64,000 nucleotides of DNA from Myxococcales bacterium 68-20 (lineage in GTDB: Bacteria; Myxococcota_A; Polyangia; Polyangiales; Polyangiaceae): assembly GCA_001899635.1 (NCBI GenBank), contig MKVQ01000040.1, forward strand, positions 375,915-439,914, read 5' to 3'. Positions 33,927 to 45,694 of this stretch are shown here, one piece after another; positions within the stretch are counted from its first letter, which is position 1, and each line of letters opens with the position of its first letter. A program made the translations under genes and the position numbers. The notes under the pieces were generated by a model. The model made no database searches. It was not told where the DNA came from and saw nothing but the letters and a program-made list of their open reading frames with translations.

Positions 33927-34973
33927 TTGCGTCTTGGTGTGCTCATTGCGCTCGCGATCGTGCTGGTGGCGCCAGCTGCCCTCGCGACGGAGACCGAGCC
34001 CGAGACGGTATCGCTCGTCTATCGCGTCCCTGATGGCTGTCCGAACGAGAGCGCGTTCGTGTCGGCGGTCGGCGCTCGGACGCGTCGCGCGAAGTTCGTG
34101 GACCGAGCGGCGAACGCGCGGCGGTTCGTCGTCGACGTCCGGCGTCTCGGGGGTAGCTACAGCGGCCGACTCGTCATCGAGGCCGGAGGAGAACGCGCGA
34201 CGCGCGACGTCACGAGCGCGCGCTGCGAAGACCTCGTCGATGCGTTCGTCCTCTTCACGGCGATCGCGATCGATCCGGGCGGGGCTTTCGCGTCGGTGGA
34301 GGCTGCGCCGCCGCCGGCATCCGCGGAGCCTGCGGCGCCCCCAGCGTCGCCGCCGGCATTGCCTCCGCCTCCTCCGGCATCGCCTCCGCCCGTTCCACGC
34401 CGCGCCCCCGCTGCGGTGGAGCGACAGCCGCCCGCTCGGCCGTCATGGCACTTGTCGGTCGGATCGGGCGGCATCGCGGCGACCGGCATCGCCGAGTCCG
34501 CGATGATCGCGGCACACCCCGTCCTCGATCTCGCTTGGAGCGCGACCGGCCCCTCGCCGAGCATGCGCATCGGCCTCGTCTGGGCGAACGGTGCTTCTCA
34601 GCCGGCGCCCCCGGGCAGGCTCACGTTCGGGCTCCGCGCGCTCGCCCTCTCGGGCTGCGGATACCATCTGCGTTTTGGCGAGAGTGCTGGGGTCGGCGTT
34701 CGACTTTGCGTCGTCTTCGAAGGCGGGGTTCTGCAGATCCGCCCCTTCGCACTCGAACGTCCAAGGTCTACGGATCGTCCGTGGTTTGCCGCTGGGCCGC
34801 TCGTGCGGCTCGACGTGCCGATCCTTCCCGGACGCCTGGCCGCCTTCGCCGACGGCGCCATCGCGATCCCGCTCGAACGCGAAAGCGTCTACGTTTCTCC
34901 CGGTCCTACCGTCGCCGCGGTCGAGGCCGTCGGCCTGCGTCTCGCGCTCGGGATCGTCCTCCAAGCTTTCTGA
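33927..34973 (+). CDS. Exported protein of unknown function with Pro-rich linker
   Basis: 348 residues. A TTG start gives a signal peptide (LIALAIVLVAPAALA, cut before TETEP); a GTG four codons later would also work. The N-terminal domain (to about 120) has two cysteines and VRRLGGSYSGRLVIEAGGER. A Pro/Ala-rich linker follows (PPASPPALPPPPPASPPPV), then a beta-rich C-terminal domain of about 180 residues (MRIGLVWANGASQPAPPG, FAAGPLVRLDVPILPGR) that could be a small outer-membrane barrel. I know this layout from myxobacterial proteins next to ECF sigma genes; the sigma gene is 1.5 kb downstream here. Confidence 0.7.
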   Translation: MRLGVLIALAIVLVAPAALATETEPETVSLVYRVPDGCPNESAFVSAVGARTRRAKFVDRAANARRFVVDVRRLGGSYSGRLVIEAGGERATRDVTSARCEDLVDAFVLFTAIAIDPGGAFASVEAAPPPASAEPAAPPASPPALPPPPPASPPPVPRRAPAAVERQPPARPSWHLSVGSGGIAATGIAESAMIAAHPVLDLAWSATGPSPSMRIGLVWANGASQPAPPGRLTFGLRALALSGCGYHLRFGESAGVGVRLCVVFEGGVLQIRPFALERPRSTDRPWFAAGPLVRLDVPILPGRLAAFADGAIAIPLERESVYVSPGPTVAAVEAVGLRLALGIVLQAF

Positions 34974-34994
34974 TCCTCGAAGTCGATCTGCGCG

Positions 34995-35055
34995 ATTCGG
35001 GTCGAGGCCGCGCGACTGGATGAGCCCGCGGCCTGGGAGCCTACGGTCGAGGTAG
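34995..35055. repeat. Direct repeat, copy A
   Basis: About 60 bp, shared with copy B at 36355-36412. The core CTGGGAGCCTACGGTCGAGG is identical in both, preceded in both by a CTGGATGAG block and a TCGAGG-C block. Copy A has one extra base in the middle and few substitutions. It starts 22 bp after the stop of the gene at 33927. The pair brackets a 1.3-kb patch of small genes and palindromic repeats. Confidence 0.75.
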
Positions 35056-35098
35056 ATTCCCGCGTCGACAATGCAGCCCGGGAGCGCCGCGAAAAGGG

Positions 35099-35476
35099 CT
35101 ACGGCGTAGGACCGCGCTCCTCTTCGAGCCAGTCATGGATCGGGTTCATGGGATCCCCTTCCCACGTCTTTGTGTCGTGCCACCAAGAGTCGAACCTGGG
35201 CGCACGAGCGCGAACCATGATCGCTCGCCCCGCTTGGCGGATCTCGAGATCGGCCCAAGCCACGATGCGGCGCGTACGCTCCTCCTGCTCTCGCAGAGGC
35301 CTCCCCTTCCACGCCGTCGCCTCGGCCGCGAGGAGCGCGAACTTCCGTACCGCGGACGCCTCGTCCGGCATCGGGAGGCTCCTCCAATGGAAGCCGCCCA
35401 TCGTCTCGTTCTTCTCGAAGCCGTCGACGAGGACATCGAGCAACGTGACATCCTCCTGCCTCGTTCCTTCGCTCAT
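35099..35476 (-). CDS. Small protein of unknown function
   Basis: 125 residues from the ATG at 35476 (MSEGTRQEDVTLLDVLVDGF). The text is well-formed: a Trp-rich soluble protein with EKNETMGGFHWRSLPMPDEA and AWADLEIRQAGRAIMVRARA, ending DPMNPIHDWLEEERGPTP. No signal peptide or membrane helix. Similar lone cytoplasmic proteins occur in myxobacterial accessory regions, but no family is recognised. It follows, by 100 bp, the broken small gene at 35576-35761 on the same strand. Confidence 0.65.
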   Translation of the reverse strand: MSEGTRQEDVTLLDVLVDGFEKNETMGGFHWRSLPMPDEASAVRKFALLAAEATAWKGRPLREQEERTRRIVAWADLEIRQAGRAIMVRARAPRFDSWWHDTKTWEGDPMNPIHDWLEEERGPTP

Positions 35477-35575
35477 GAAGCCAGCGACTGTACAAGGCCG
35501 TCCGCTCACCGACCAGCCAAGGCCGCGCCGCTCGCGGCGACTGTGCGCCGCACGTTCGCTGTCTGCCCGACGGGC

Positions 35576-35761
35576 TCAACGATGCGCGCGCAACCTGCGC
35601 CAGCTCGCCTGCGCCCCGGGCGGGGCGACGCGCATCGTGAACTCGCGCATCTCCTCGAGCCACCTCAATCGCTCCGAGGGTGAACGCGCTCCAAACGCCT
35701 CGAGCTGGGCATCGGAGACCCAGTACTAGAAGCCTGCCGGCGGCTCTTCGTTCTCAGCCAT
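35576..35761 (-). pseudogene. Small gene interrupted by an in-frame amber codon
   Basis: From an ATG at 35761 the frame reads MAENEEPPAGF, then TAG (35726-35728), then continues without break as YWVSDAQLEAFGARSPSERL, a WLEEMREF stretch and RLRAHR to a TGA at 35576. The part after the TAG looks like a genuine small protein of the type GFEYWVSD-x-QL-x-AF (from memory of such partners of toxin-like genes), in which the TAG position is normally Glu (GAG). A single G-to-T change explains it. It is either a nonsense mutant or a sequencing error. The start overlaps the end of the frame at 35754-35915. Confidence 0.55.
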
Positions 35762-35915
35762 TACGGTCCCTCGCGATTCGTTCGAGGTGCACGAGATCGT
35801 AGGTCATCCGAGGCACGCGAGCGAACGCCCTCCGCTGACGCTCGAGCTTCGCGCACGACGCCTGAATCACGTCGAGCGTCGCGGGCGGTTCTCGACGGCC
35901 CCGAGGCCGTCCCAT
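35754..35915 (-). CDS. Small upstream partner of the amber-interrupted gene
   Basis: 53 residues from an ATG at 35915: a Arg/Pro start, then LDVIQASCAKLERQRRAFAR and VPRMTYDLVHLERIARDRNG. The C-terminal 40 residues look like a real helical protein. Its TGA (35754-35756) lies inside the start region of the next gene (overlap of eight bases), the usual sign of a coupled pair. The N-terminus abuts the first palindromic repeat (35917), and the frame continues open through the repeats, so the true start may be further upstream or the gene may have been truncated by the array. No family is recognised. Confidence 0.4.
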   Translation of the reverse strand: MGRPRGRREPPATLDVIQASCAKLERQRRAFARVPRMTYDLVHLERIARDRNG

Positions 35916-35916
35916 G

Positions 35917-36186
35917 CCGGTCGCGACCGCTCTTCGACTCCGACCGGGCAGCATCAGGCCGGTCGCAGCCGGCCTTTCAGCCCCAGCGGGCAGCAAAAGG
36001 CCGGTCGCAACCGGCCTTTCAGCCCCAGCGGGCAGCATCAAGCCGGTCGCAACCGGCTTTTCGATCCCTTCGAGCCAATTCAAGGTCGGTCGCAACCGGC
36101 TTTGCGAAGCCTCTGGGCAGCTGCAGGCCGGTCGCGACCGGCCCGACGATGCCGCTGACCACCCCGGAGGCGGTCGCGACCGGCAG
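35917..36186. repeat. Seven palindromic repeats at 42-bp spacing
   Basis: Units start at 35917, 35959, 36001, 36043, 36086, 36128 and 36170: all 42 bp apart except one at 43. Each opens with GCCGGTCGCAACCGGC or a close variant, a hairpin of six pairs closing on a four-base loop. In the two best copies the remaining bases are also shared (CTTTCAGCCCCAGCGGGCAG); in the others they have diverged. Being a multiple of three, the unit could be translated as a 14-residue repeat (RPVATGLMLPAGAE) in the frame of the small gene downstream on the minus strand. Confidence 0.85.
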
Positions 36187-36354
36187 GAGGCTCGTCGCCG
36201 CGCCGTCAGAAGATGCTCTCGGAGCCGGCCGAGCGAATCGTCCGGCTGAAGACGAACGCTGGATGCACCGGACGCTGAGGAATGCGCTCGCGTAACCGCG
36301 TCCGCGCTTCGACGGCCCGATCGCGGACTCCATGTTCGTCGGCTATCGTGCCGG

Positions 36355-36412
36355 CATCGGAGTCGAGGCGCGTCTGGATGAGTTCGCGCCTGGGAGCCTA
36401 CGGTCGAGGTAG
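36355..36412. repeat. Direct repeat, copy B
   Basis: Second copy of the 34995-35055 element, same orientation, with the identical core CTGGGAGCCTACGGTCGAGG. Read on the plus strand it would end a frame VEARLDEFAPGSLRSR with TAG; copy A keeps ARLDE in another register, so both could be worn pieces of one former gene. Apart from this repeat the stretch 36187-36518 holds no gene; the sigma-factor promoter must lie there, but no -35/-10 pair with correct spacing is visible. Confidence 0.75.
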
Positions 36413-36518
36413 CTCTCCCCCGGCTCGCTCCGATGGTTTCTTCGAGGCGTCCGAGCGCGCCCGAAATGTGTCGGCGCAGAAATGAACCGAGCGGTCTCCG
36501 TACATTGCTCTTTCTTGG

Positions 36519-37118
36519 ATGCGGGCCGTCACGAACGTTCACGAGCTCGAGCTCGCTCTGCCGGAGTCTCGGCGCGTGCCTGAGACGACCGAGCTCGGTG
36601 CCCTCTTCCGTGAGCACGCGCAGTTCATCGCACGTTCGCTACGGCGCCTCGGTGTCCCGGCGAGCGACGTCGAGGACACGGTGCAGGAGGTCTTCGTCGT
36701 CGCCTCGCGCAAGATCGACGCGATCGAAGCGGGCTCCGCACGCGCGTTTCTCTACGGGACGGCGATGCGCGTGGCGTCGAACGCGCGGCGCGTCGATCGC
36801 CGCACACAAGCGCGACGCGCCGAAGCGCCGATCGAGCGCGCGGAGGTGGAGATCGACCGCGGGCCCACGCCGGAGGAGCTCATCGAGCGACGCCACGCGC
36901 GCGCCGCGCTCGATGCGGTCCTCGAGACGATGACCGTCGAGATGCGTGCGGTCTTCACGCTCTTCGAGCTCGAGGAGATGACGACCTCCGAGATCGCGTC
37001 GTTCCTCGGCGTGCCCGCGGGCACCGTGAGCTCCCGGCTTCGACGCGCGCGAGAACACTTCGACGAGCAGGTGCGCGAGCTACAGGCGCGGATCGAGCGA
37101 GAAGGACACACGACATGA
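36519..37118 (+). CDS. ECF-type RNA polymerase sigma factor
   Basis: 199 residues. Region 2 reads LFREHAQFIARSLRRLGVPA, then DVEDTVQEVFVVASRKIDAI, with the promoter-melting helix after it; region 4 reads FTLFELEEMTTSEIASFLGV then PAGTVSSRLRRAREHF, a helix-turn-helix for the -35 element. No region 1 or 3, as expected for ECF factors. The gene heads a seven-gene operon; its stop overlaps the start of the next gene as ATGA. It probably drives the surface-protein genes that follow. Confidence 0.93.
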   Translation: MRAVTNVHELELALPESRRVPETTELGALFREHAQFIARSLRRLGVPASDVEDTVQEVFVVASRKIDAIEAGSARAFLYGTAMRVASNARRVDRRTQARRAEAPIERAEVEIDRGPTPEELIERRHARAALDAVLETMTVEMRAVFTLFELEEMTTSEIASFLGVPAGTVSSRLRRAREHFDEQVRELQARIEREGHTT

Positions 37119-37879
37119 GCAATCCTCGCCGCTACTTGGACGATGAGAGGGCCGCGCCGCTCGCGCGTGCTCTCCTGCAATCAGCCGCTGACGACGGGCT
37201 CGACGAGACCCGGGTGGCGGAGCTCGCGCGCGCCCTCAGCGCCGGGGCTGGCGGTGCCGCCGCCGGCGAGCCCTTCGTCGCAGACGCACGGTCGAGGCTG
37301 CCCTACGCTCTCTTCGCGGCATCGAAGTGGGCGCTCCTTGCGATCCTCCCGCTCGCCGTCGCCGGCGGCGTCTTCATCGCCAGGGACGATGGTCGTGCGC
37401 CGACCTCGAACGCTGTGCCTTCGGACGGGACGGCCGCTCCTCCGATCGCCGAGCCCGCTGTCGTCTCCACCACGTCCGAGAGGCCTCCTCCGGACGCGGT
37501 CCCCGTCGCGCTCCTGCCCGAGGCGCCGCCGGAGTCCGTCGCGCGCGTGACTCGTAAGTCCGGCGCTGGTGGGGCGGCAACGCCTGCGTCGTCGGCTTCC
37601 GGCGACCTGGCCGCGGAGGTCCGCGCCCTCGAGCGCGTACGCGGCGCGATCGCCGAGCGCCGTCTGTCCGACGCGCGAGCGGGGCTCGAGAGCTACGAGC
37701 GTGCGTTCCCGAAGAAGCTCCTCGGAAGCGAAGCGCGCGTCCTCGAGATCGAGCTCCTTCTTGCCGACGGCCGCCGTGAGGAGGCCGAGGCGCGCGCACG
37801 GGCCTTCTTGGCTTCTTCCGCCGACAGCCCCTACGCCGCGCGCGTTCGCTCGCTCATCGCGCGCCCCCGTCTTCCCTGA
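37115..37879 (+). CDS. Single-pass membrane protein, probable anti-sigma/partner of the ECF factor
   Basis: 254 residues. An N-terminal cytoplasmic part of about 60 residues (RALLQSAADDGLDETRVAEL), one membrane helix (WALLAILPLAVAGGVFIA, about 71-88), a Pro/Ala/Thr linker, then a helical TPR-like end (ALERVRGAIAERRLSDARAG then LLADGRREEAEARARAFLAS). Overlap with the sigma gene (ATGA) and the anti-sigma-like layout point to a membrane regulator of the sigma factor. The HxxxCxxC motif of zinc anti-sigma factors is absent, so the sigma-binding mode would differ. Such TPR-tailed partners are common beside ECF genes in myxobacteria. Confidence 0.75.
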   Translation: MSNPRRYLDDERAAPLARALLQSAADDGLDETRVAELARALSAGAGGAAAGEPFVADARSRLPYALFAASKWALLAILPLAVAGGVFIARDDGRAPTSNAVPSDGTAAPPIAEPAVVSTTSERPPPDAVPVALLPEAPPESVARVTRKSGAGGAATPASSASGDLAAEVRALERVRGAIAERRLSDARAGLESYERAFPKKLLGSEARVLEIELLLADGRREEAEARARAFLASSADSPYAARVRSLIARPRLP

Positions 37880-37890
37880 GGACACTCGAA

Positions 37891-39075
37891 ATGCTCCGCC
37901 ATACTGCCATTGTCACGATCGCCGTCATGGCGATCTCCATCCCGCTCTGGAGCGGGGGATGTTCGCACCGCGATCCGCTGAACTACCCACCGCCCGTCGA
38001 GGTCGGGCCGCCGTCTTTCACGTCTCTCGACGCTGCGGTCGTCGAGGAAGACGCCGGCCTTACGTCGTATTGCCCCTCGAACAAGTGCCCTTCGGGTCAC
38101 ACGACGTGTCCGATCTCGCGGTTCCCGTGCGACGTGAATCTGAAGGCGGATAGAGACAACTGCGGCGCGTGCGGCTTCGCTTGCCCGTCTTCCGGTGACC
38201 TTTATGAGTGCATCGATGGTCACTGCGTACTTCAATGCGATATCAGCTACAATCGAGACTGCGACGGATTCGACGATAACGGTTGTGAGACTAGGCTCGG
38301 GACGAACGACAACTGCACTGGATGCGGGGACAAATGCCTGGATCCGGCAAATCCTTGCGTGCAAAGATCATCAGCGCCCGGTGACTACGGATGCGGCTGC
38401 GGGGCAGGGCGGCTGTACTGCAATGGGAAGTGTGTCGATCCGAAGGGGGACGACCAGAACTGCGGAGGATGCGGTAACGTCTGTGATCCGAGTGGCGATG
38501 GCGGAGCTAGCCGGCCGAATACCTATTTCGGCTGCATCGACGGCGAGTGCGGCCGCTACAAATGCAAGGATGGCCACATCGACTGCGACGGGGATCGATT
38601 GAACGGGTGTGAGGCCGATCTCCTGTCGCGGGAGCATTGCGGCGGCTGCGGCAACGCCTGCGCTCCCGGTCAAGAGTGCCAGCTCGATCTGGATTCCGTG
38701 CCCCAATGCATGTGTCCCGCAGGCCAGACCTTCTGCGCCTTCTTCTGCGCCGGAGCTCACTGTATCGGTGAATGCGCCGATATCTCCTCGGACCCACTCA
38801 ACTGCGGAGCTTGCGGCGTCCTCTGTGGAGGAACGGCGGAAACGAAGCTCAATGAATGCAGATACGGCGTATGCACCCAGGTCTGCGGAAAGGGACAAGC
38901 GGACTGCAACGGCAATCCTGCGGATGGTTGCGAAGTGAATGTCGATCAGGATCCGCTAAATTGCGGCGCTTGCGGAAAAGTCTGCGACGCCGTCAGCGGA
39001 CAAGCGTGCGTCGGCGGCCAGTGCGTGGTCGAACCGTGTGACGAGGTCCAAGACGCTGGAGAGCTCGCGCGATGA
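37891..39075 (+). CDS. Cys-rich lipoprotein with repeated NCGxCG motifs
   Basis: 394 residues. Signal with lipobox WSGGC (about residue 24), then an Asp/Pro linker. The rest is built of repeats, each with the pattern DC-[DN]-G-x-NGCE, about ten residues, then NCG-[AG]-CG-x-x-C: six NCGxCG-type sites can be counted (DNCGACGFAC, QNCGGCGNVC, EHCGGCGNAC, LNCGACGVLC, LNCGACGKVC, and the variant DNCTGCGDKC). Databases often misname such proteins after tryptophan synthase or Stig1; they are secreted disulfide-rich proteins of unknown role. Codon use is less GC-biased than in the neighbours (many AAT, TGT, AAG). It is 11 bp after the partner gene and overlaps the next by ATGA. Confidence 0.85.
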   Translation: MLRHTAIVTIAVMAISIPLWSGGCSHRDPLNYPPPVEVGPPSFTSLDAAVVEEDAGLTSYCPSNKCPSGHTTCPISRFPCDVNLKADRDNCGACGFACPSSGDLYECIDGHCVLQCDISYNRDCDGFDDNGCETRLGTNDNCTGCGDKCLDPANPCVQRSSAPGDYGCGCGAGRLYCNGKCVDPKGDDQNCGGCGNVCDPSGDGGASRPNTYFGCIDGECGRYKCKDGHIDCDGDRLNGCEADLLSREHCGGCGNACAPGQECQLDLDSVPQCMCPAGQTFCAFFCAGAHCIGECADISSDPLNCGACGVLCGGTAETKLNECRYGVCTQVCGKGQADCNGNPADGCEVNVDQDPLNCGACGKVCDAVSGQACVGGQCVVEPCDEVQDAGELAR

Positions 39076-40292
39076 AAACGCGATGGTTGATGATCGTCGC
39101 AGGTATTACCGCATGCGCTTCGACGGACGCGTTGCTCGAGGAGTCGCCGGATGTCGCTTCGGCGGTGCCCGACGCGTCACCTCCGCCGGACGCGGATTCC
39201 GACGCCGCAGTACCCGAATTCGATGCAGGACCATGCGTCGATTGCGAATATTTCCCCGAGGTTTGCACCCCCGACGCGCTCTGCTCGAGCGAGCTCTTCG
39301 ATCCGAACCAGCCCGGCGAAAGCCTCGACTTGCGGACGCAGATCATGGTCATCCGAGGCCGCTCTGCCAGCGACGTCTGGGCCGCCGGGGCGCTCGGGGC
39401 ACTCGCTCACTTCGACGGCAGCTCGTGGAAGCGCTCGGATCCCGGTGAAAGAGAGACGCTGCGGGCTCTTTGGCTACGCGACTCAGGAGAGGTGGCGCTC
39501 GGCGTGCTCGATCATGTCTTTGCGCGCGGGCTCGATGACGCTGGCGCTCCGCCTTCCGCGGGAGGCTGGACGCGCCAGGTGTCATCGGCGACGCTCGCGT
39601 ACAATCCCTCTCCCTGGGTTCCGCTGCCCCTCGTCGCTAGGTCCTTGAAGTTCCAGTCCGCGTGGGCTGCTCCGGGTTCGGAGTCGCTTTGGTGCGCGAC
39701 GCTCGCCACGAATGCAGGGTCCTCGAGCGGCCTCTGGCGTCTTCGCCAAACACCTTCCTCGACGTTCGAGATCGGTGTCGGCATCGCCCCGGAAGTGTGC
39801 CGGGTCCTCCCGTGCAGCCAGATGACGAGCATCCACGGAGCCTCGGCGAACGAGCTCTGGGCCGTGGGGGCGGAGGGCTCGACGGTTCGTATCACGGACG
39901 CCGAGAGCGATACGCCGAATGTCGAGGTGTTCAACAGCCAGACGTGGAACGCGCTCCATGGCGTTTGGGCTGCATCCGCATCGGAGGCATGGTCGGTTGG
40001 CGTGAGGGGGACCATCCGCCGCTACACGGGGGATCCGGAGTTCTGGGATGTCGTTTCGGACGTCCCGACGACCGAGAACCTCAATGCCGTATGGGGCTCG
40101 TCGGCCACCGACATCTGGGCTGTCGGCGATCGGGGCGTCGTCCTTCACTATGACGGCAAGAGCTGGTCCCGCGTGAAGGTCGCGGGGCTTGGCGTGCGTC
40201 GTCCCACTCTCAGTACCGTCTGGCTCGCCGGAACGGGCCACGTCTGGGTGGGTGGCCAGGGGGTGCTTCTTTCTCTTGGAGGGAATCCATGA
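39072..40292 (+). CDS. Lipoprotein with beta-propeller-like repeats (I)
   Basis: 406 residues. Lipobox GITAC (about residue 15), an Asp/Ala/Pro linker and a CVDCEYFPEVC cysteine patch, then repeated blades of the type [IV]-x-G-x-S-[AS]-x-[DE]-[VIL]-W-A-V-G: RGRSASDVWAAGALGALAHF, HGASANELWAVGAEGSTVRI, WAASASEAWSVGVRGTIRRY and WGSSATDIWAVGDRGVVLHY. About five such blades are visible. This is the common myxobacterial exported propeller; binding of glycan or protein is likely but unproven. Start and stop overlap both neighbours (ATGA each), so it belongs firmly to the operon. Confidence 0.85.
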   Translation: MKTRWLMIVAGITACASTDALLEESPDVASAVPDASPPPDADSDAAVPEFDAGPCVDCEYFPEVCTPDALCSSELFDPNQPGESLDLRTQIMVIRGRSASDVWAAGALGALAHFDGSSWKRSDPGERETLRALWLRDSGEVALGVLDHVFARGLDDAGAPPSAGGWTRQVSSATLAYNPSPWVPLPLVARSLKFQSAWAAPGSESLWCATLATNAGSSSGLWRLRQTPSSTFEIGVGIAPEVCRVLPCSQMTSIHGASANELWAVGAEGSTVRITDAESDTPNVEVFNSQTWNALHGVWAASASEAWSVGVRGTIRRYTGDPEFWDVVSDVPTTENLNAVWGSSATDIWAVGDRGVVLHYDGKSWSRVKVAGLGVRRPTLSTVWLAGTGHVWVGGQGVLLSLGGNP

Positions 40293-41593
40293 GGGACTCG
40301 TATTGGCTCGCCTGCGCGATGGCCGTGCTTGCCGCCGCTGCAGGCGTGGCGTGCGCAACGTCAGAAAACGATGTGGAGCTGTCGCTTGCGCCGGACTCGG
40401 GCGGAAGCGAAGCCGCGATCCCGGACGGTGGTTCGGTCGAAGACACCGATGCCGATGCCGACGTCGACGTCGACGGACTTCTGTGCAGCAAGGCGGGGTG
40501 GTGCGCGACCTCCTTGCCGGACGCCGACCTGTCGATGCGGGACATCTGGCCACTACCGGGGCGCGCCTTCGCGATCGCGGAGAGTCAAACACTCGGTGTC
40601 AAAGTTCTCGAGTGGGACGACGCCGAGGCCAAGTGGAAGTACATCGACGACAGCACCCAGGTCGAACCTGGAATGGGCCATTACGCAGGGGGTATCTGGG
40701 CGCCCAACGAGAGCGAAGTATATTACGCGGTTGCGCCGGGGTATATCTATCACGGAAATCGGTCTGCGACACCCGGGGCGCCTTGGTCGTGGACGCGCCA
40801 CCGACTCGAAGACAATAGCCATCCCGGCGGCGCTATCGATCCGGAGGACGGTTACCCGCTGTACTCGCAGATCGGAATACGCCGACCCGCGCTCGGGGTG
40901 TGGGGGACGAGCTCTGGCGACGTCTACGCGTGGTTCACGAACACGATCTATCGCTGGAAGAGCGTCGACGGAGGCGCGCCGGGCTGGGTCTCCGAGCACG
41001 TTGCGGACGACTCCGAGAACCCCGACGAGCATCTGTTCTTCGTCGCCGCCGGCGGTACGGGGCCTGACGACGTCTGGTTCTCGGGCGCAAGGTCTCGAAA
41101 GTGGGCCGCTTGCGCGCTCGCCGTGCGCAAGACCCCCGCAGGCTACCAGAGGGTCGCGGACGGCATCCTCCCGAGCACCTTTCAACCGTGCACGCCGCGA
41201 GCAGGAACATTGATGATCGGCGGAAGCGAGGGATGGCTCACCGACATTCAGGCGCTGGCGGCGGATCAGCTCGTTGGCCTCAAGGGCGGTGGCAACGTGG
41301 TGAGGATCTCGGTAGCGGGTGACAGCTATTCGGTCGCCCTTTCGACGGTCCCGCCTGCGCTCTCCAAATCCAAACCGTGGGACTCGCTCTCGGCCGTGCA
41401 GGGGACGCCGTGGCTGAGCGGATGGGGGCTCGTCATTCGAGGCACCGACGTCTGGGACGACGGTGGCTACGCGATCTCGACGACCTCCATGCGCGGACCG
41501 CTCGGACGACGCGTGTACCGGGTTCGAGGTGCGTCCAATACCAACCTCTGGGCGATCGGTGACGGCTATGCGCTTCACAAGACGACTCCTTGA
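40289..41593 (+). CDS. Lipoprotein with beta-propeller-like repeats (II)
   Basis: 434 residues. Lipobox AGVAC (about 22), an Asp-rich linker (EDTDADADVDVDG), then blades more diverged than in the preceding gene: GIWAPNESEVYYAVAPGYIY, LGVWGTSSGDVYAWFTNTIY, AGGTGPDDVWFSGARSRKWA and RGASNTNLWAIGDGYALHKT. It is probably a paralogue or partner of propeller I. Its last 26 bases overlap the start of the RCC1 gene. No catalytic residues are recognised. Confidence 0.82.
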   Translation: MRDSYWLACAMAVLAAAAGVACATSENDVELSLAPDSGGSEAAIPDGGSVEDTDADADVDVDGLLCSKAGWCATSLPDADLSMRDIWPLPGRAFAIAESQTLGVKVLEWDDAEAKWKYIDDSTQVEPGMGHYAGGIWAPNESEVYYAVAPGYIYHGNRSATPGAPWSWTRHRLEDNSHPGGAIDPEDGYPLYSQIGIRRPALGVWGTSSGDVYAWFTNTIYRWKSVDGGAPGWVSEHVADDSENPDEHLFFVAAGGTGPDDVWFSGARSRKWAACALAVRKTPAGYQRVADGILPSTFQPCTPRAGTLMIGGSEGWLTDIQALAADQLVGLKGGGNVVRISVAGDSYSVALSTVPPALSKSKPWDSLSAVQGTPWLSGWGLVIRGTDVWDDGGYAISTTSMRGPLGRRVYRVRGASNTNLWAIGDGYALHKTTP

Positions 41594-42959
41594 TCCGTAC
41601 TTCTCTGCTGCGCTGGTGCTCGTCGGCTGCTCGGCTACGGCAGGCGCGGCCGTTAGCTGTTCGAGCGACGAAGTCGTCGGTATAGCCGAGCCGCTCGACC
41701 CTGGATCGGACGCGTCCAGCGCGACCGACGACGCTTCGGCGCTCGACGCCGGGCCGCTCGACGATGCTCGCTCGCGGGACGCGGCATGGTTCGACGGCGG
41801 TCCTCTCCCCGTCTCTTGCACCTCTGCACCATGCGCGGTGTCGCTCGTCACGACGCTCGGTGCGAGCGATGCCGATCGCGGCGAGGGCTTCTGCGCGCTG
41901 CTCCAGGACAGCACGGTGGCATGCTGGGGGGCAAACCAGGCCGGCCAGCTCGGGCGAGGTGAGGAGGCAGACCCGCTCGGCAGCGCGACGGCCGCGCGTG
42001 TCACCGGCCTCACGGACGTCAGCCAGCTCGATCACACGTGCGCTGTCGACAAGAGCGGCGGCGTCTGGTGCTGGGGAACGGGACCCTATCTCCGGAACGA
42101 CGCGGGCGCGTCCACCACGGAGCGCACACCGGTGAAGCTCCCCCTCCCACCAGCGAAGCGAGTGGCCATGGGAGCAGAGGTCGCGTGCGCGACGGTCGAC
42201 GATGGCCTTCTCTGCTGGGGAACGAACACGTCCGGTCAGCTCGCGTCCTTCGAGACCTCGTCGGCGTCCGATGTGCTGCCTCCACGATCGATGGCCATCC
42301 CGCCCGGTGCGCCGATCCGCGATCTCGTCGTCGGCAAGGCCACCTTCACGCTTCGCGAGGACGGCGCGACGTTGAGCTGGGGAGCGAATCCCCCGCTCGC
42401 ACGCGTCTCCTCGCTCGTCCCCGATCCACGTCCCGCTCGGATCGTGCTCGATCGCATCTCGTCGATCGATATCGCGAGCGACAGCGCGTGCGCGACAGTC
42501 GGGGGCATCGGCTATTGCTGGGGGACGGTCATTCCGACGGTCGAGGAGGAACAATCGGAGGCCAAGGAGTCCCTCCGCCGCGCTCTTCCGGAGCCGGTCG
42601 TAGCACCCGAGCCGCTCGTTCAGATCGCCACCACGCGCACCTTCATCACCAAAGAAGCATCCAGCCGGATCATCGAGCCGCAGCGGTGGTGCGCGGTGGC
42701 GGTGTCCGGCGCCGTGTACTGCTGGGGATACAACGCGAGCGGTCAGGCGGGGAACGGGACGAAGGACTACGCGTTCGAGCCGGTCACGGTCAAAGGCCTT
42801 CCGGAGCCCGCTGTTCAGGTGAAGACAATGCCCAACGCCACGTGTGCACTCTTGGTGAGTGGTAAAGTGTATTGCTGGGGAGGTAATGCGAGTGGCCAGC
42901 TCGGAAATGGCAAATTTCGCGTACCGAGCATCGTTCCTCAGGAAGTGGTGCTCCCGTGA
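41568..42959 (+). CDS. RCC1-repeat lipoprotein
   Basis: 463 residues from the ATG at 41568 inside the end of the previous gene (26-bp overlap); the frame is open back to 41463. The N-terminus (LLDPYFSAALVLVGC) is a lipoprotein signal with Cys at about 20. After an Asp/Ala linker, RCC1 blades recur: FCALLQDSTVACWGANQAGQ, HTCAVDKSGGVWCWG, VACATVDDGLLCWGTNTSGQ, WCAVAVSGAVYCWGYNASGQ and TCALLVSGKVYCWGGNASGQ. Two cysteines per blade are shared, a common trait of bacterial exported RCC1 proteins. A seven-blade propeller is likely; ligand unknown. It is coupled to the next gene by GTGA. Confidence 0.9.
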   Translation: MRFTRRLLDPYFSAALVLVGCSATAGAAVSCSSDEVVGIAEPLDPGSDASSATDDASALDAGPLDDARSRDAAWFDGGPLPVSCTSAPCAVSLVTTLGASDADRGEGFCALLQDSTVACWGANQAGQLGRGEEADPLGSATAARVTGLTDVSQLDHTCAVDKSGGVWCWGTGPYLRNDAGASTTERTPVKLPLPPAKRVAMGAEVACATVDDGLLCWGTNTSGQLASFETSSASDVLPPRSMAIPPGAPIRDLVVGKATFTLREDGATLSWGANPPLARVSSLVPDPRPARIVLDRISSIDIASDSACATVGGIGYCWGTVIPTVEEEQSEAKESLRRALPEPVVAPEPLVQIATTRTFITKEASSRIIEPQRWCAVAVSGAVYCWGYNASGQAGNGTKDYAFEPVTVKGLPEPAVQVKTMPNATCALLVSGKVYCWGGNASGQLGNGKFRVPSIVPQEVVLP

Positions 42960-44752
42960 GGCGCATTCGAATGTCTCGCGGCGCCGTGGCGGCGGCCCTT
43001 GCTCTCGTCCTCTCGATCGTGTGGATGGCTGCCTGCGGGGATGATCGAGATGGCGGGTTCTTGCGTCGCGACTCGAGCTTCGAGACGGACGCCTCCACCT
43101 CCGTGGACGCTCCGGACTGTCGCCTGCAATGCTCACTCGACGGACGTTCGCTCGTCGAAGACTGCACTGGCAAGGTCGTCGAGACGTGCCGGCCCGAGCT
43201 CGCGTGTGGCGGCGGCGTATGCCAAGAACCGTGCGCGGCCGCCGCCGCCGATCGGAGCTCGAACGGCTGCGAGTTCTATCTCCAGGTTCCTCCGAGCTCG
43301 AATCAATTCAGCCCCGCATCCTGTTACGCCGCGTACGTCGTCAATACGTCGAACCAGCCCGCCGACGTGTCGTTCGAGCTGGAAGGACGCGGCCTCGATA
43401 TCTCGAAGTCGATGTACCGCACGAATCCGGGCGATGCCGCGTTGACTCCCCACGTCGGCGCCATTCCCCCGGGTGAGAGCGTCGTCCTCTTCATCTCCGA
43501 CAGCGACCCGAACTCGCCCCCCGCCAGCAGCCCGACGGCCCACCCCGTGCGTTGTCCGGACGGCATCGTTCCCACGAGAGTCTCGAGTCGCGTGCTGAGC
43601 GGCACGACCTTCGCCTCCTCGTACCATCTGAGGACCAACGTGCCGGTGGCCGCCTCGACGATCTACCCGTTCGGCGGAGCCAGGAGTTACGTTCCAACGG
43701 CGACACTTCTCCTCCCGGTTGCTACGTGGGGCAAGCAGCACATCCTCGTCAATGCTTGGGAACTCGGGCGCGGACCGTCGGCGCAGATCATCGCTTCGGA
43801 GGACGACACCGAGGTGACCATCGTTCCGACGCGCGACATCCAGGACGGCAACGGTGTCGTCGGCGGCCCGGCGCAAGTACCGATAACGTATCGCCTCGAC
43901 AAGGGGCAGCTCTTGCAGCTCGTCCAGCCGCAGGAGCTCACCGGGAGCATGGTCGCTTCGAGCAAGCCGATCACGACCGTCGGCGGGAATGTCTTGGCGT
44001 GCATCCCATGGGATCACGGTGCGTGCGATATCGCAGCTCAGCAGATCCCGGCGTTCGAGCAGTGGGGATCGGAGTACGTCGGCGTCGGCTATCGCCCGCG
44101 CGCTGGCAACGAGCACGAGTCGATGCCGTATCGCATCGTCGCGGCGCGGGATGGGACGCGGCTCGACTACGATCCCGCGGTGCCGCCCGGCGCGCCGACG
44201 ACCATGTCTGCCGGAGAAGTCGCGACCTTCTCTTCCGGAACCGGTGACGCGTTCGTCGTCCGCACCCAAGACGTCGACCATCCGATCTATCTCGCCGCGT
44301 ACATGACCGGAGGAGACGGCGCCGGCGTGGGTGGCGGCTACGGGGGCGCGGGAGACCCGGAGTTCGTCAACGTCGTTCCGGCGGGGCAGTACTTGAACGC
44401 GTACAGCTTCTATGCGGATCCGACCTACGCCGAGACGTCCCTCGTGATCGTGAGAGCCAAGACCCGCGGCGAGTTCAAGGACGTCTGGCTCGAGTGCGCC
44501 GGAAACGTCACGGGATGGAGGCCCATCGGCACGAGAGCCGAATACGAGTTCGTCAGGCTCGATCTCTCGCGTGACCACGGACCCGGCGATACGTTCGGCA
44601 CGAGCATATGCCAGTATGGCCTCCAGCGTATGCGGAGCGAGGGCCCGTTCACCGCGACGCTGTGGGGCTGGGACACCCACGCGAGCTACGCCTACCCCGG
44701 CGGCATGGCCCAGCGGAAGCTCGTCGAAACTCCGTTGCCGCTGATCCGCTGA
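42956..44752 (+). CDS. IgGFc-binding-type lipoprotein
   Basis: 598 residues from a GTG overlapping the RCC1 stop (GTGA). Signal with lipobox WMAAC (about 27), a Cys-rich segment (CRLQCSLDGRSLVEDC, CGGGVCQEPC), then a domain as in the IgGFc-binding N-terminal family: FYLQVPPSSNQFSPASCYAA, STIYPFGGARSYVPTATLLL, IIASEDDTEVTIVPTRDI and SSKPITTVGGNVLACIPWDH. The name comes from a human mucus protein; in bacteria it marks large exported surface proteins of unknown ligand. It is the last gene of the sigma operon and is followed by a strong hairpin. Confidence 0.85.
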   Translation: MRRIRMSRGAVAAALALVLSIVWMAACGDDRDGGFLRRDSSFETDASTSVDAPDCRLQCSLDGRSLVEDCTGKVVETCRPELACGGGVCQEPCAAAAADRSSNGCEFYLQVPPSSNQFSPASCYAAYVVNTSNQPADVSFELEGRGLDISKSMYRTNPGDAALTPHVGAIPPGESVVLFISDSDPNSPPASSPTAHPVRCPDGIVPTRVSSRVLSGTTFASSYHLRTNVPVAASTIYPFGGARSYVPTATLLLPVATWGKQHILVNAWELGRGPSAQIIASEDDTEVTIVPTRDIQDGNGVVGGPAQVPITYRLDKGQLLQLVQPQELTGSMVASSKPITTVGGNVLACIPWDHGACDIAAQQIPAFEQWGSEYVGVGYRPRAGNEHESMPYRIVAARDGTRLDYDPAVPPGAPTTMSAGEVATFSSGTGDAFVVRTQDVDHPIYLAAYMTGGDGAGVGGGYGGAGDPEFVNVVPAGQYLNAYSFYADPTYAETSLVIVRAKTRGEFKDVWLECAGNVTGWRPIGTRAEYEFVRLDLSRDHGPGDTFGTSICQYGLQRMRSEGPFTATLWGWDTHASYAYPGGMAQRKLVETPLPLIR

Positions 44753-44778: not shown

Positions 44779-44814
44779 GGTGGCCCGCACCAGGCCTGAT
44801 CTGGCCGGGCCACC
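44779..44814 (+). terminator. Hairpin ending the sigma-factor/lipoprotein operon
   Basis: A perfect 9-bp outer stem GGTGGCCCG (44779-44787) with CGGGCCACC (44806-44814), plus an inner CCAG/CTGG stem (44790-44793/44801-44804). It lies 27 bp after the last stop of the operon. A T run is missing, as is usual in high-GC genomes, so Rho may assist. Confidence 0.7.
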
Positions 44815-44956
44815 CTAGGCGCGGTCGCAAGCGCGCGGAACGAGCGGGCTTCGATCGCGGCGCACGAGCTGCTGAGGCAGGAGCGTGACCACGCCGCTGC
44901 CGCGAGCCGGAGCTCGACGTCGTGACGAGCACGCGCCATCGGCATACGCTGAAGCC

Positions 44957-45694
44957 ATGCGAGCTCCCAAGAAGAGGTCGTCGCCGGTGCTGGTCTACCC
45001 GGAGACCGACGACATGGGAGAGCACGAGCTGCAGCGTCTCATCGCCGAGCTCCTCCGGCCATTGCTTGAGCGCTTTCTCGCCGAGCGCGGCATCGTCGCT
45101 CACGCAGGCGCCGACCAGTTCGTCTACTGGGCGGAGGGCGAGCCCACGAAGCGCATCGCCCCCGACCTCTACGTCCTCCCCGGCGTCAGGCAGGACGTCG
45201 TCATTCGCTCCTGGAAGACGTGGCAGACGGGCATCGTGCCGAGCTTCGTCCTCGAGATCGCCGGCGACGACTACGCGAAGGACTACGAGGACAACCCGGT
45301 GCTCTACGGCGACCTCGGCGTCGAAGAGCTCGTCATCTTCGACCCCCACGCGCGCCCAGGCTCCCGCAGCAGCCGTGTCCGCTGGCAGGTCTATCGCCGC
45401 ATCCGGCGGCGCGGTCTCGTTCGCGTCGAGGTCTCCCAGAGCGATCGCGTGCGCTCCAAGCACCTCGGGGTCTGGCTGCGCGCCGTCGGCACCGGAGACG
45501 ACGTCCGCGTTCGCATCGCCCTCGGCCCTCAAGGCGACGAGCTCTATCCCACGGAAGCCGAGGCCGAATGCGCTGCGAAGGAGCAAGAGCGCGCCCAGCG
45601 GCTGCGGGCCGAAGCGGAGGTCGAGCGGCTGCGCGCGCTCCTTGCGGCGAAGACGGGGCGACGGTCTCGATCGCGTGCGAAGCGATCGCGCTGA
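44957..45694 (+). CDS. Uma2-family (PD-(D/E)xK-like) endonuclease domain protein
   Basis: 245 residues from the ATG at 44957 (MRAPKKRSSPVLVYPETDDM). Core blocks: RIAPDLYVLPGVRQDV (the PD), PSFVLEIAGDDYAKDYEDNP (the E-x-x residue) and LYGDLGVEELVIFDP, as in Uma2 proteins. They form a restriction-like fold and are often present in many copies with unknown targets. A Lys/Arg/Ala-rich coiled tail (AAKEQERAQRLRAEAEVERL) follows. It stands alone between the operon hairpin and the ilv leader. A second Uma2 is only a remnant at 51665. Confidence 0.85.
   Translation: MRAPKKRSSPVLVYPETDDMGEHELQRLIAELLRPLLERFLAERGIVAHAGADQFVYWAEGEPTKRIAPDLYVLPGVRQDVVIRSWKTWQTGIVPSFVLEIAGDDYAKDYEDNPVLYGDLGVEELVIFDPHARPGSRSSRVRWQVYRRIRRRGLVRVEVSQSDRVRSKHLGVWLRAVGTGDDVRVRIALGPQGDELYPTEAEAECAAKEQERAQRLRAEAEVERLRALLAAKTGRRSRSRAKRSR

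What the first reader, a model, noticed from the sequence alone, without database searches (positions are those of the whole stretch)
36519..44752. Seven-gene ECF-sigma operon making a set of five surface lipoproteins
Sigma factor, a membrane protein and five predicted lipoproteins (Cys-rich repeats, two propellers, RCC1, IgGFc-binding type) run head-to-tail: overlaps ATGA, 11-bp gap, ATGA, ATGA, 26 bp, GTGA, then a hairpin. Each lipoprotein has its own signal and a different binding-type fold. Nothing enzymatic is seen, so the output may be an adhesive or recognition coat switched on by one sigma factor. I know of no described system with exactly this set.
Basis: partly seen in the sequence, partly recalled or inferred. 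Interest (0 to 1): 0.75.

Follow-up and report, generated by a model that had tools for sequence, protein, structure and literature searches.

The report
Shuffled family of 122 surface operons
This bacterium carries about 122 versions of one operon of up to eight genes (over 9% of its genome), most with their own control genes and a set of five predicted surface proteins, and evolution has re-paired the control halves and the surface halves like interchangeable parts.

Summary
The seven genes, their junctions and the terminal hairpin are real. The main discovery lies outside the coordinates: the operon is one of 122 paralogous copies in this 11.9 Mb genome. 111 of 122 keep S-M-C-P-Q-R-I in strict order (sigma, membrane protein, five predicted lipoproteins). 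94 have an eighth gene, X (predicted 8-strand outer-membrane barrel), within 600 bp upstream of S. The family covers about 1.12 Mb, 9.4% of the genome.

Across 112 copies with all seven genes (88 with X), X, S and M are inherited together, and so are C, P, Q, R and I, but the halves show almost no co-inheritance (rho -0.05 to 0.11, against 0.36-0.40 and 0.70-0.83 within halves; trees share 1 of 47 splits). The exchanged unit runs from just after the C signal peptide to the stop of I, between two conserved DNA boxes. Swaps also appear between two species. 72% of copies score above background for a bipartite promoter before S.

Best reading: separately controlled surface coats in which recombination re-pairs a sensing head with a lipoprotein body. 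Architecture and shuffling are shown; sensing, surface location and purpose are inferred. The window's own copy is atypical: X is displaced by 1.5 kb and no family-type promoter was found.

The parts
33927..34973 (+). X: signal-peptide-like start, alpha/beta N-domain, Pro-rich linker, predicted 8-strand outer-membrane beta-barrel
   Evidence: Profile match of this copy 3.3e-77 (the window copy was in the profile's training set); AlphaFold2 mean pLDDT 86.7; Foldseek to NspA 4.6e-6, OmpA, Ail, OmpX
34974..36518 (.). Segment separating X from S in this copy (gap under 600 bp in 94 of 97 copies with X); holds a minus-strand ORF 35099-35509 and a 42-bp tandem repeat 35916-36062; no family-type promoter
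36519..37118 (+). S: ECF-type sigma factor
37115..37879 (+). M: predicted single-pass membrane protein, short N-terminal helices, TPR-like C-terminal domain; putative anti-sigma factor
   Evidence: TM-like segment in 106 of 119 family members; AlphaFold2; TPR Pfam matches in some of 41 members, none in the window's
37891..39075 (+). C: Cys-rich predicted lipoprotein; its first ~60 codons lie on the head side of the exchange border
38068..38157 (+). 5' exchange box: conserved DNA from the YCPS codons of C, about where body similarity begins
39072..40292 (+). P: predicted propeller lipoprotein
40289..41593 (+). Q: predicted propeller (tectonin-like, weak) lipoprotein
41568..42959 (+). R: RCC1-repeat predicted lipoprotein
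42956..44752 (+). I: IgGFc_binding-domain predicted lipoprotein
   Evidence: PF17517 342.7 bits, cut-off 25.6
44693..44752 (+). 3' exchange box: conserved last 60 bp of I up to the stop codon; no conserved columns in the 120 bp after it
44779..44814 (+). Hairpin after I (9-bp stem), no T-run

Best explanation
The operon is one member of a genome-wide repertoire of about 122 operons built from two interchangeable halves. Head: X (predicted outer-membrane barrel with an N-domain), S (ECF sigma factor), M (single-pass membrane protein with a TPR-like domain). Body: five predicted lipoproteins C, P, Q, R, I. SHOWN by sequence: copy number, strict order, co-inheritance within each half, near-absence of co-inheritance between halves, exchange borders at two conserved DNA boxes, and swaps between species. 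INFERRED: X and M pass an envelope signal that frees S; S transcribes its own operon from the promoter between X and S; the five lipoproteins go to the outer surface as a recognition or adhesion coat; homologous recombination (gene conversion, favoured between tandem neighbours) copies bodies behind different heads, so which signal turns on which coat keeps being rewired.
For: Copies: 141 PF17517 matches in the genome; 122 operons, 111 with all of S-M-C-P-Q-R-I; 1.12 Mb = 9.4%. X within 600 bp of S in 94 of 122. Independence of halves: n=112 (88 for X), rho S-M .395, X-S .36, X-M .39, within body .70-.83, between -.05 to .11; same nearest neighbour 51/112 (S-M), 60-70/112 (within body), 2-6/112 (S or M against body), 2-5/88 (X against body). 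Trees of S+M and of P+R+I share 1 of 47 splits, P against R+I 26, S against M 20; each data set rejects the other's tree (50 of 112 operons, 1000 replicates, fewer than the program advises). Replicated in G003 (23 operons): M-body .01-.10, within body .68-.90. Border: rho with the body rises from .09 for the first 40 columns of C to .50 and .63 for the windows starting at columns 20 and 40; in 13 of 13 pairs chosen for similar bodies the DNA match begins inside C and ends within -15 to +86 nt of the I stop. Conserved DNA at both ends, none after the stop. Interspecies swaps: G003 L261 and L250. Tandem neighbours share bodies more (mean .58 against .38 overall; 12 pairs.30-.83), heads hardly (.335 against .313). 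Promoter: of 72 copies with a -35 score over 6 (of 122), best -10 at gap 12-13 in 43, 5.9 expected. Loosest junction is M|C: 4-nt overlap in 41 of 115 placed, against C|P 117/121.
Against: No expression, binding or localisation data. M has no anti-sigma Pfam match in 41 members, and its model is weak outside the TPR part. The promoter was found by EM on the same sequences; EM likelihoods of two controls were about as high (far upstream 434 and reverse complement 401, against 413; shuffled 64), so the spacing and background tests carry the weight; about 28% of copies, the window's among them, show no promoter above background; exact-consensus genome scans were uninformative. S-C (.106) and M-Q (.085) slightly exceed their null maxima; in G003 X and S against the body reach .16-.28. 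Within C the correlation with the rest of the body varies (.13-.63 beyond the first window). Whole operons are also inherited intact: 11 of 23 G003 operons have one G000 operon as best match in every component, and 3 pairs of G000 operons are in the top 1% for both halves, 0.7 expected.
Confidence: 0.6

Rival explanations
1. Coat switching: bodies are variable surface antigens (against phage, predators or rivals); only one or a few copies are expressed at a time, and recombination of bodies is the way to change coat.
For: Large mosaic family, conserved boxes at both cassette ends, bodies shared among tandem neighbours; fairly high dN/dS, medians C .46, P .35, R .44, I .28 over 9 pairs.
Against: Donor cassettes are not mostly partial: 122 operons carry their own S, 111 the full set, and only 7 loci were body-only; 72% score above background for a promoter; 11 of 23 G003 operons keep their pairing.
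Confidence: 0.2
2. Ligand-specific sensing in the manner of Fec or Sus systems: the lipoproteins catch a ligand and pass the signal through X and M to S, so each operon is a matched receptor-regulator set.
For: Predicted OM barrel, single-pass M, ECF sigma and lipoproteins lie in one locus; Q weakly resembles tectonin lectins.
Against: Head and body hardly co-evolve; no Pfam FecR, SusC, SusD or TonB-receptor match in the proteins scanned.
Confidence: 0.1
3. Mostly non-adaptive amplification: the operon spread by duplication and conversion, with little need for so many copies.
For: One genome has far more PF17517 first-look candidates than its relatives: 144 against 47 (G003) and at most 22 in the other 106 genomes of the family searched; no function known. 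Transposases near the operons were not looked for.
Against: Gene sets mostly complete, median dN/dS below 1 for C, P, R and I, orthologues kept between species.
Confidence: 0.1

Closest known systems
ECF sigma / anti-sigma operons in general
   Same: ECF sigma followed by a single-pass membrane protein with start-stop overlap, promoter directly before the sigma gene in most copies
   Different: M has no recognised anti-sigma domain; 122 paralogous operons in one genome; output half inherited independently
FecI-FecR-FecA cell-surface signalling (recalled)
   Same: OM barrel, inner-membrane protein and ECF sigma encoded together and co-inherited
   Different: X is a predicted 8-strand barrel, not a TonB-dependent receptor; no FecR domain; output is lipoproteins
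Bacteroides ECF/anti-sigma-SusCD families (recalled)
   Same: Dozens of ECF-controlled surface operons per genome
   Different: No SusC/SusD or enzymes found; head and body shuffled
Cassette antigenic variation such as pilE/pilS, vlsE, VSG (recalled)
   Same: Surface-protein cassettes exchanged by recombination between conserved sequences
   Different: A 6.8-kb multigene body is exchanged; nearly every copy has its own sigma gene

Membership tests
ECF sigma factor | Regions 2 and 4 and little else | tested here: met
   PF04542 33.2 bits (cut-off 24), PF08281 53.2 bits (cut-off 25.7), 199 aa
ECF sigma / anti-sigma operon | Neighbouring membrane anti-sigma factor that binds the sigma | tested here: inconclusive
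   M overlaps S by 4 nt in 96 of 118 and has one TM-like segment in 106 of 119, co-inherited with S; no anti-sigma Pfam in 41 members; binding not testable
ECF sigma / anti-sigma operon | Autoregulated promoter before the sigma gene | tested here: inconclusive
   Bipartite motif with preferred gap 12-13 in 43 of 72; not found for the window copy; recognition by S not testable
Fec-type cell-surface signalling | TonB-dependent receptor with signalling domain | tested here: not met
   X model is an 8-strand barrel; no TonB-receptor Pfam in 40 X proteins
Fec-type cell-surface signalling | FecR-domain anti-sigma | tested here: not met
   0 of 41 M proteins match FecR in Pfam at 0.01
SusCD / polysaccharide utilisation system | SusC and SusD homologues | tested here: not met
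   None among the seven window proteins in Pfam or among 40 X proteins
Cassette antigenic variation | Recombination of surface-protein cassettes between paralogues | tested here: met
   Mosaic pattern: (surface location itself not tested)
Cassette antigenic variation | Donor cassettes mostly partial, without their own expression signals | tested here: not met
   122 operons have their own S, 7 body-only loci; promoter above background in 72%; silence as such not tested
Cassette antigenic variation | Switching observed within a lineage | not testable with these tools
   Needs repeated isolates or long-read population data
PF17517 IgGFc_binding domain | Score over the Pfam cut-off | tested here: met
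   342.7 against 25.6 bits; binding of IgG not tested

The most novel reading that the evidence does not exclude
A bacterial combinatorial repertoire at the scale of operons: more than 100 input heads (outer-membrane barrel, sigma factor, membrane regulator) and more than 100 output bodies (five-lipoprotein coats) are re-paired by recombination at fixed borders, so the genome keeps generating new links between a signal and a surface identity: a rewiring device rather than a simple gene family.
Probability: 0.4. Interest if true: 0.95.

Novelty: categorically new. Interest (0 to 1): 0.85.

Why it matters
Nearly a tenth of a bacterial genome is devoted to one operon design, and its two halves evolve as interchangeable parts. 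If borne out, it would give a natural, large-scale case of input-output rewiring in gene regulation, a set of over 100 related sigma/promoter/regulator sets for studying specificity and crosstalk, and a new candidate basis for recognition or adhesion in this group of bacteria. Four of its protein families (X, M, P, Q) got no function from the family scans made here: Pfam for all four, NCBIfam for the window's M, P and Q.

Tried and rejected
First-pass gene calls used over-extended ORF starts; two attempts to clean them lost genes and were dropped; searches are the clean version and give the same result. rest on the first-pass calls. The dN/dS of Q (above 1 in 3 of 9 pairs) is not used: in 3 pairs only 85-92 codons and in one 194 at 29% identity were compared, which I take for wrongly framed ORFs. 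Clade-by-clade promoter search mostly found the coding end of X and settled nothing; whether promoters are private to sigma clades is open (-35 identity .60 within against .50 between clades, -10 .54 against .41, spacer .33 against .29, on 87 promoters picked by the same matrix). Eight pairs with similar heads are not a mirror image of the 13 body pairs: in 2 of 8 the match stops near the start of C; in the others it runs further or resumes in the body, whose DNA is there about 65-77% alike. Exact-consensus genome scan for the promoter: 18 hits, of which by position 2 are S promoters, 8 at a wrong spacing: uninformative. Naming relatives with protein Q found none; with profile A3 of P the closest are MAGs Labilithrix sp. 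ACE_MYX5, ACE_MYX7 and ACE_MYX8, several of whose contig lengths equal those of G003, G006 and G009. Considered and rejected: assembly artefact (median identities between copies 25-44%; 36 contigs; orthologues in other species); a single unique coat operon.

Papers: ten searches; listings and beginnings of abstracts were seen, no paper was opened. None of the listed papers appears to describe this family. The library holds open-licence papers only.
Full report
OBSERVATION. The Cys-rich gene is just over the Pfam Stig1 cut-off and below that of NCBIfam MXAN_6577-like. Genes 4 and 5 reach no family cut-off; profiles of family members point to propellers. The terminal hairpin exists but lacks a T-run.

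A FAMILY OF OPERONS. PF17517 has 141 matches in the window's genome. Around 138 of them (three fragments dropped) I fetched 135 stretches and built profiles of each gene. There are 122 operons with a sigma gene: 111 have S-M-C-P-Q-R-I exactly, the other 11 lack or duplicate a gene; 7 further loci have only C-P-Q-R-I, and 9 hits are alone or share an operon already counted. The operons lie on 36 contigs and sum to 1.12 Mb, 9.4% of the genome. 87 of the 150 listed sigma region-2 matches, a capped list, are S genes of this family. In 108 genomes of the family the own genome has 144 first-look candidates, G003 47, the other 106 at most 22; in 377 genomes of the phylum the next highest is 27 (G003 is not in its list). 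The full order with X occurs in G003, G006 and G009; stretches of it near contig ends in G004, G011 and G210; in the one locus each fetched from G007, G010, G014, G024 and G149 the order was not seen.

AN EIGHTH GENE. Upstream of S a further gene, X, lies within 600 bp in 94 of 122 operons (97 within 3.5 kb). The window's X is 33927-34973. Its model (pLDDT 86.7) has an N-terminal helix, an alpha/beta domain, a Pro-rich linker and a strand pattern that I read as an 8-strand barrel, like NspA, OmpA, Ail and OmpX. In the window X is 1545 bp from S, with an ORF on the other strand and a 42-bp repeat between them.

TWO HALVES. On 112 operons with all seven genes (88 with X) I compared pairwise distance matrices. 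S-M, X-S and X-M correlate at .36-.40; the five lipoproteins at .70-.83; the cross-correlations are -.05 to .11, with null maxima of .07-.10 from 100 permutations for S and M (S-C .106 and M-Q .085 slightly exceed theirs). Nearest neighbours agree in 51 of 112 (S-M), 37 and 44 of 88 (X-S, X-M), 60-70 of 112 (within body), and across in 2-6 of 112 or 2-5 of 88. On 50 randomly drawn operons, trees of S+M and P+R+I share 1 of 47 splits, while P against R+I share 26 and S against M 20; topology tests reject the other half's tree in both directions, with fewer replicates than advised. Clusters of heads and bodies are unrelated (adjusted Rand index .035; the largest body cluster has 11 operons in 10 head clusters on 9 contigs). 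In G003 (23 operons) the halves are also separate, though X and S reach .16-.28 with the body; in G006 (8 operons) the cross values are -.18 to .20, within head .26-.39, within body .50-.81.

THE BORDER. Sliding windows place the change within the first 60 columns of C; further along C the correlation with the rest of the body varies between .13 and .61. In 13 of 13 pairs chosen for similar bodies the DNA match (78-88%) starts inside C, 115-224 nt after the called start in at least one copy, and ends within -15 to +86 nt of the stop of I; for one pair (R093/R114) it is in two pieces. At that place in C lies a conserved DNA stretch (YCPS codons onward), and the last 60 bp of I are conserved while nothing in the 120 bp after the stop is. 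M|C is also the loosest junction: of 115 placed, 41 overlap by 4 nt, 6 otherwise, 28 have gaps up to 30 bp and 40 longer ones; C|P overlaps by 4 nt in 117 of 121 and P|Q in 114 of 117.

SWAPS. G003 locus L261 matches the head of R002 at 83.7% DNA up to C+233 and the bodies of R063 and R071 at 80-81% from C+142/156 to the stop; R063 is the tandem neighbour of R002 in the own genome. G003 L250 matches the head of R079 (69.5%, to C+118) and the body of R062 at 91.7% over 6773 bp, more than the 83-86% of whole-operon matches L267/R105, L248/R069 and L272/R090, which suggests transfer between lineages. Against constant shuffling, 11 of 23 G003 operons have one G000 operon as best match for every component. 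Neighbours in tandem arrays share bodies (mean .58 against .38; range .30-.83) but hardly heads (.335 against .313; 12 pairs; 23 of 122 copies in arrays).

REGULATION. Before S an EM search finds TTTTCGTGATCAA, 12-13 bp, cGGCATT, usually a few bases before the start codon. Its likelihood is not special: far-upstream and reverse-complement controls reach 434 and 401 against 413, shuffled 64. Two further tests carry the weight: of 72 copies with a good -35, 43 have the best -10 at gap 12-13 against 5.9 expected; 72% of S upstream regions score above the 95th percentile of coding background, but only 4% of 94 regions upstream of X. One sigma clade of 13 scores poorly. The window copy has no site above background (best 5.6, threshold 6.0). 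M has one TM-like segment in 106 of 119, a confident TPR-like C-terminal domain and short N-terminal helices; its fold matches are weak (E about 0.1). That M is the anti-sigma factor is inference.

CONSTRAINT. Median dN/dS over 9 pairs: C .46, P .35, R .44, I .28, so these proteins are on average under purifying selection but change fairly fast. Asp directly after the lipobox Cys is rare: 1 in Q and 2 in R, none for C, P and I in a listing of the eight commonest residues; by the E. coli rule (recalled) this would favour the outer membrane.

READING. Best explanation: a repertoire of separately controlled surface coats made of interchangeable heads and bodies. What is shown is anatomy, copy number, shuffling and borders; signal flow, surface location and purpose are inferred. 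That no described system matches rests on ten full-text searches of an open-licence library, none of which listed one, and on my own knowledge. The label 'categorically new' is for the arrangement (private regulator heads re-paired with multigene bodies across more than 100 loci); the parts belong to known kinds.

Noticed in passing
window 35099-35509 (-) and 35916-36062: A 136-aa ORF without Pfam match and a 42-bp tandem repeat (3.3 copies) lie in the 1.5 kb that separates X from S in this copy; possibly an insertion that silenced or rewired the window operon.
   Followed up: partly
window 44885-45694 (+): Uma2-family (putative restriction endonuclease, PF05685) gene directly after the operon.
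   Followed up: no
L286 (G006): An extra RCC1 gene sits between M and C (X-S-M-R-C-P-Q-R-I), at the exchange border.
   Followed up: no
G000:C48:255528-256006: Fragments of an IgGFc-binding gene with stop codons inside, close to a full-length match: probably a decayed copy.
   Followed up: no
L250 (G003) against R062 (G000:C16:404483-405478): Body DNA 91.7% identical between species, higher than three whole-operon matches (83-86%): suggests horizontal movement of bodies.
   Followed up: partly
sigma clade 38 (13 operons, e.g. R009, R012, R114): Different region 4.2 helix and poor match to the common promoter; possibly its own -35 element.
   Followed up: partly
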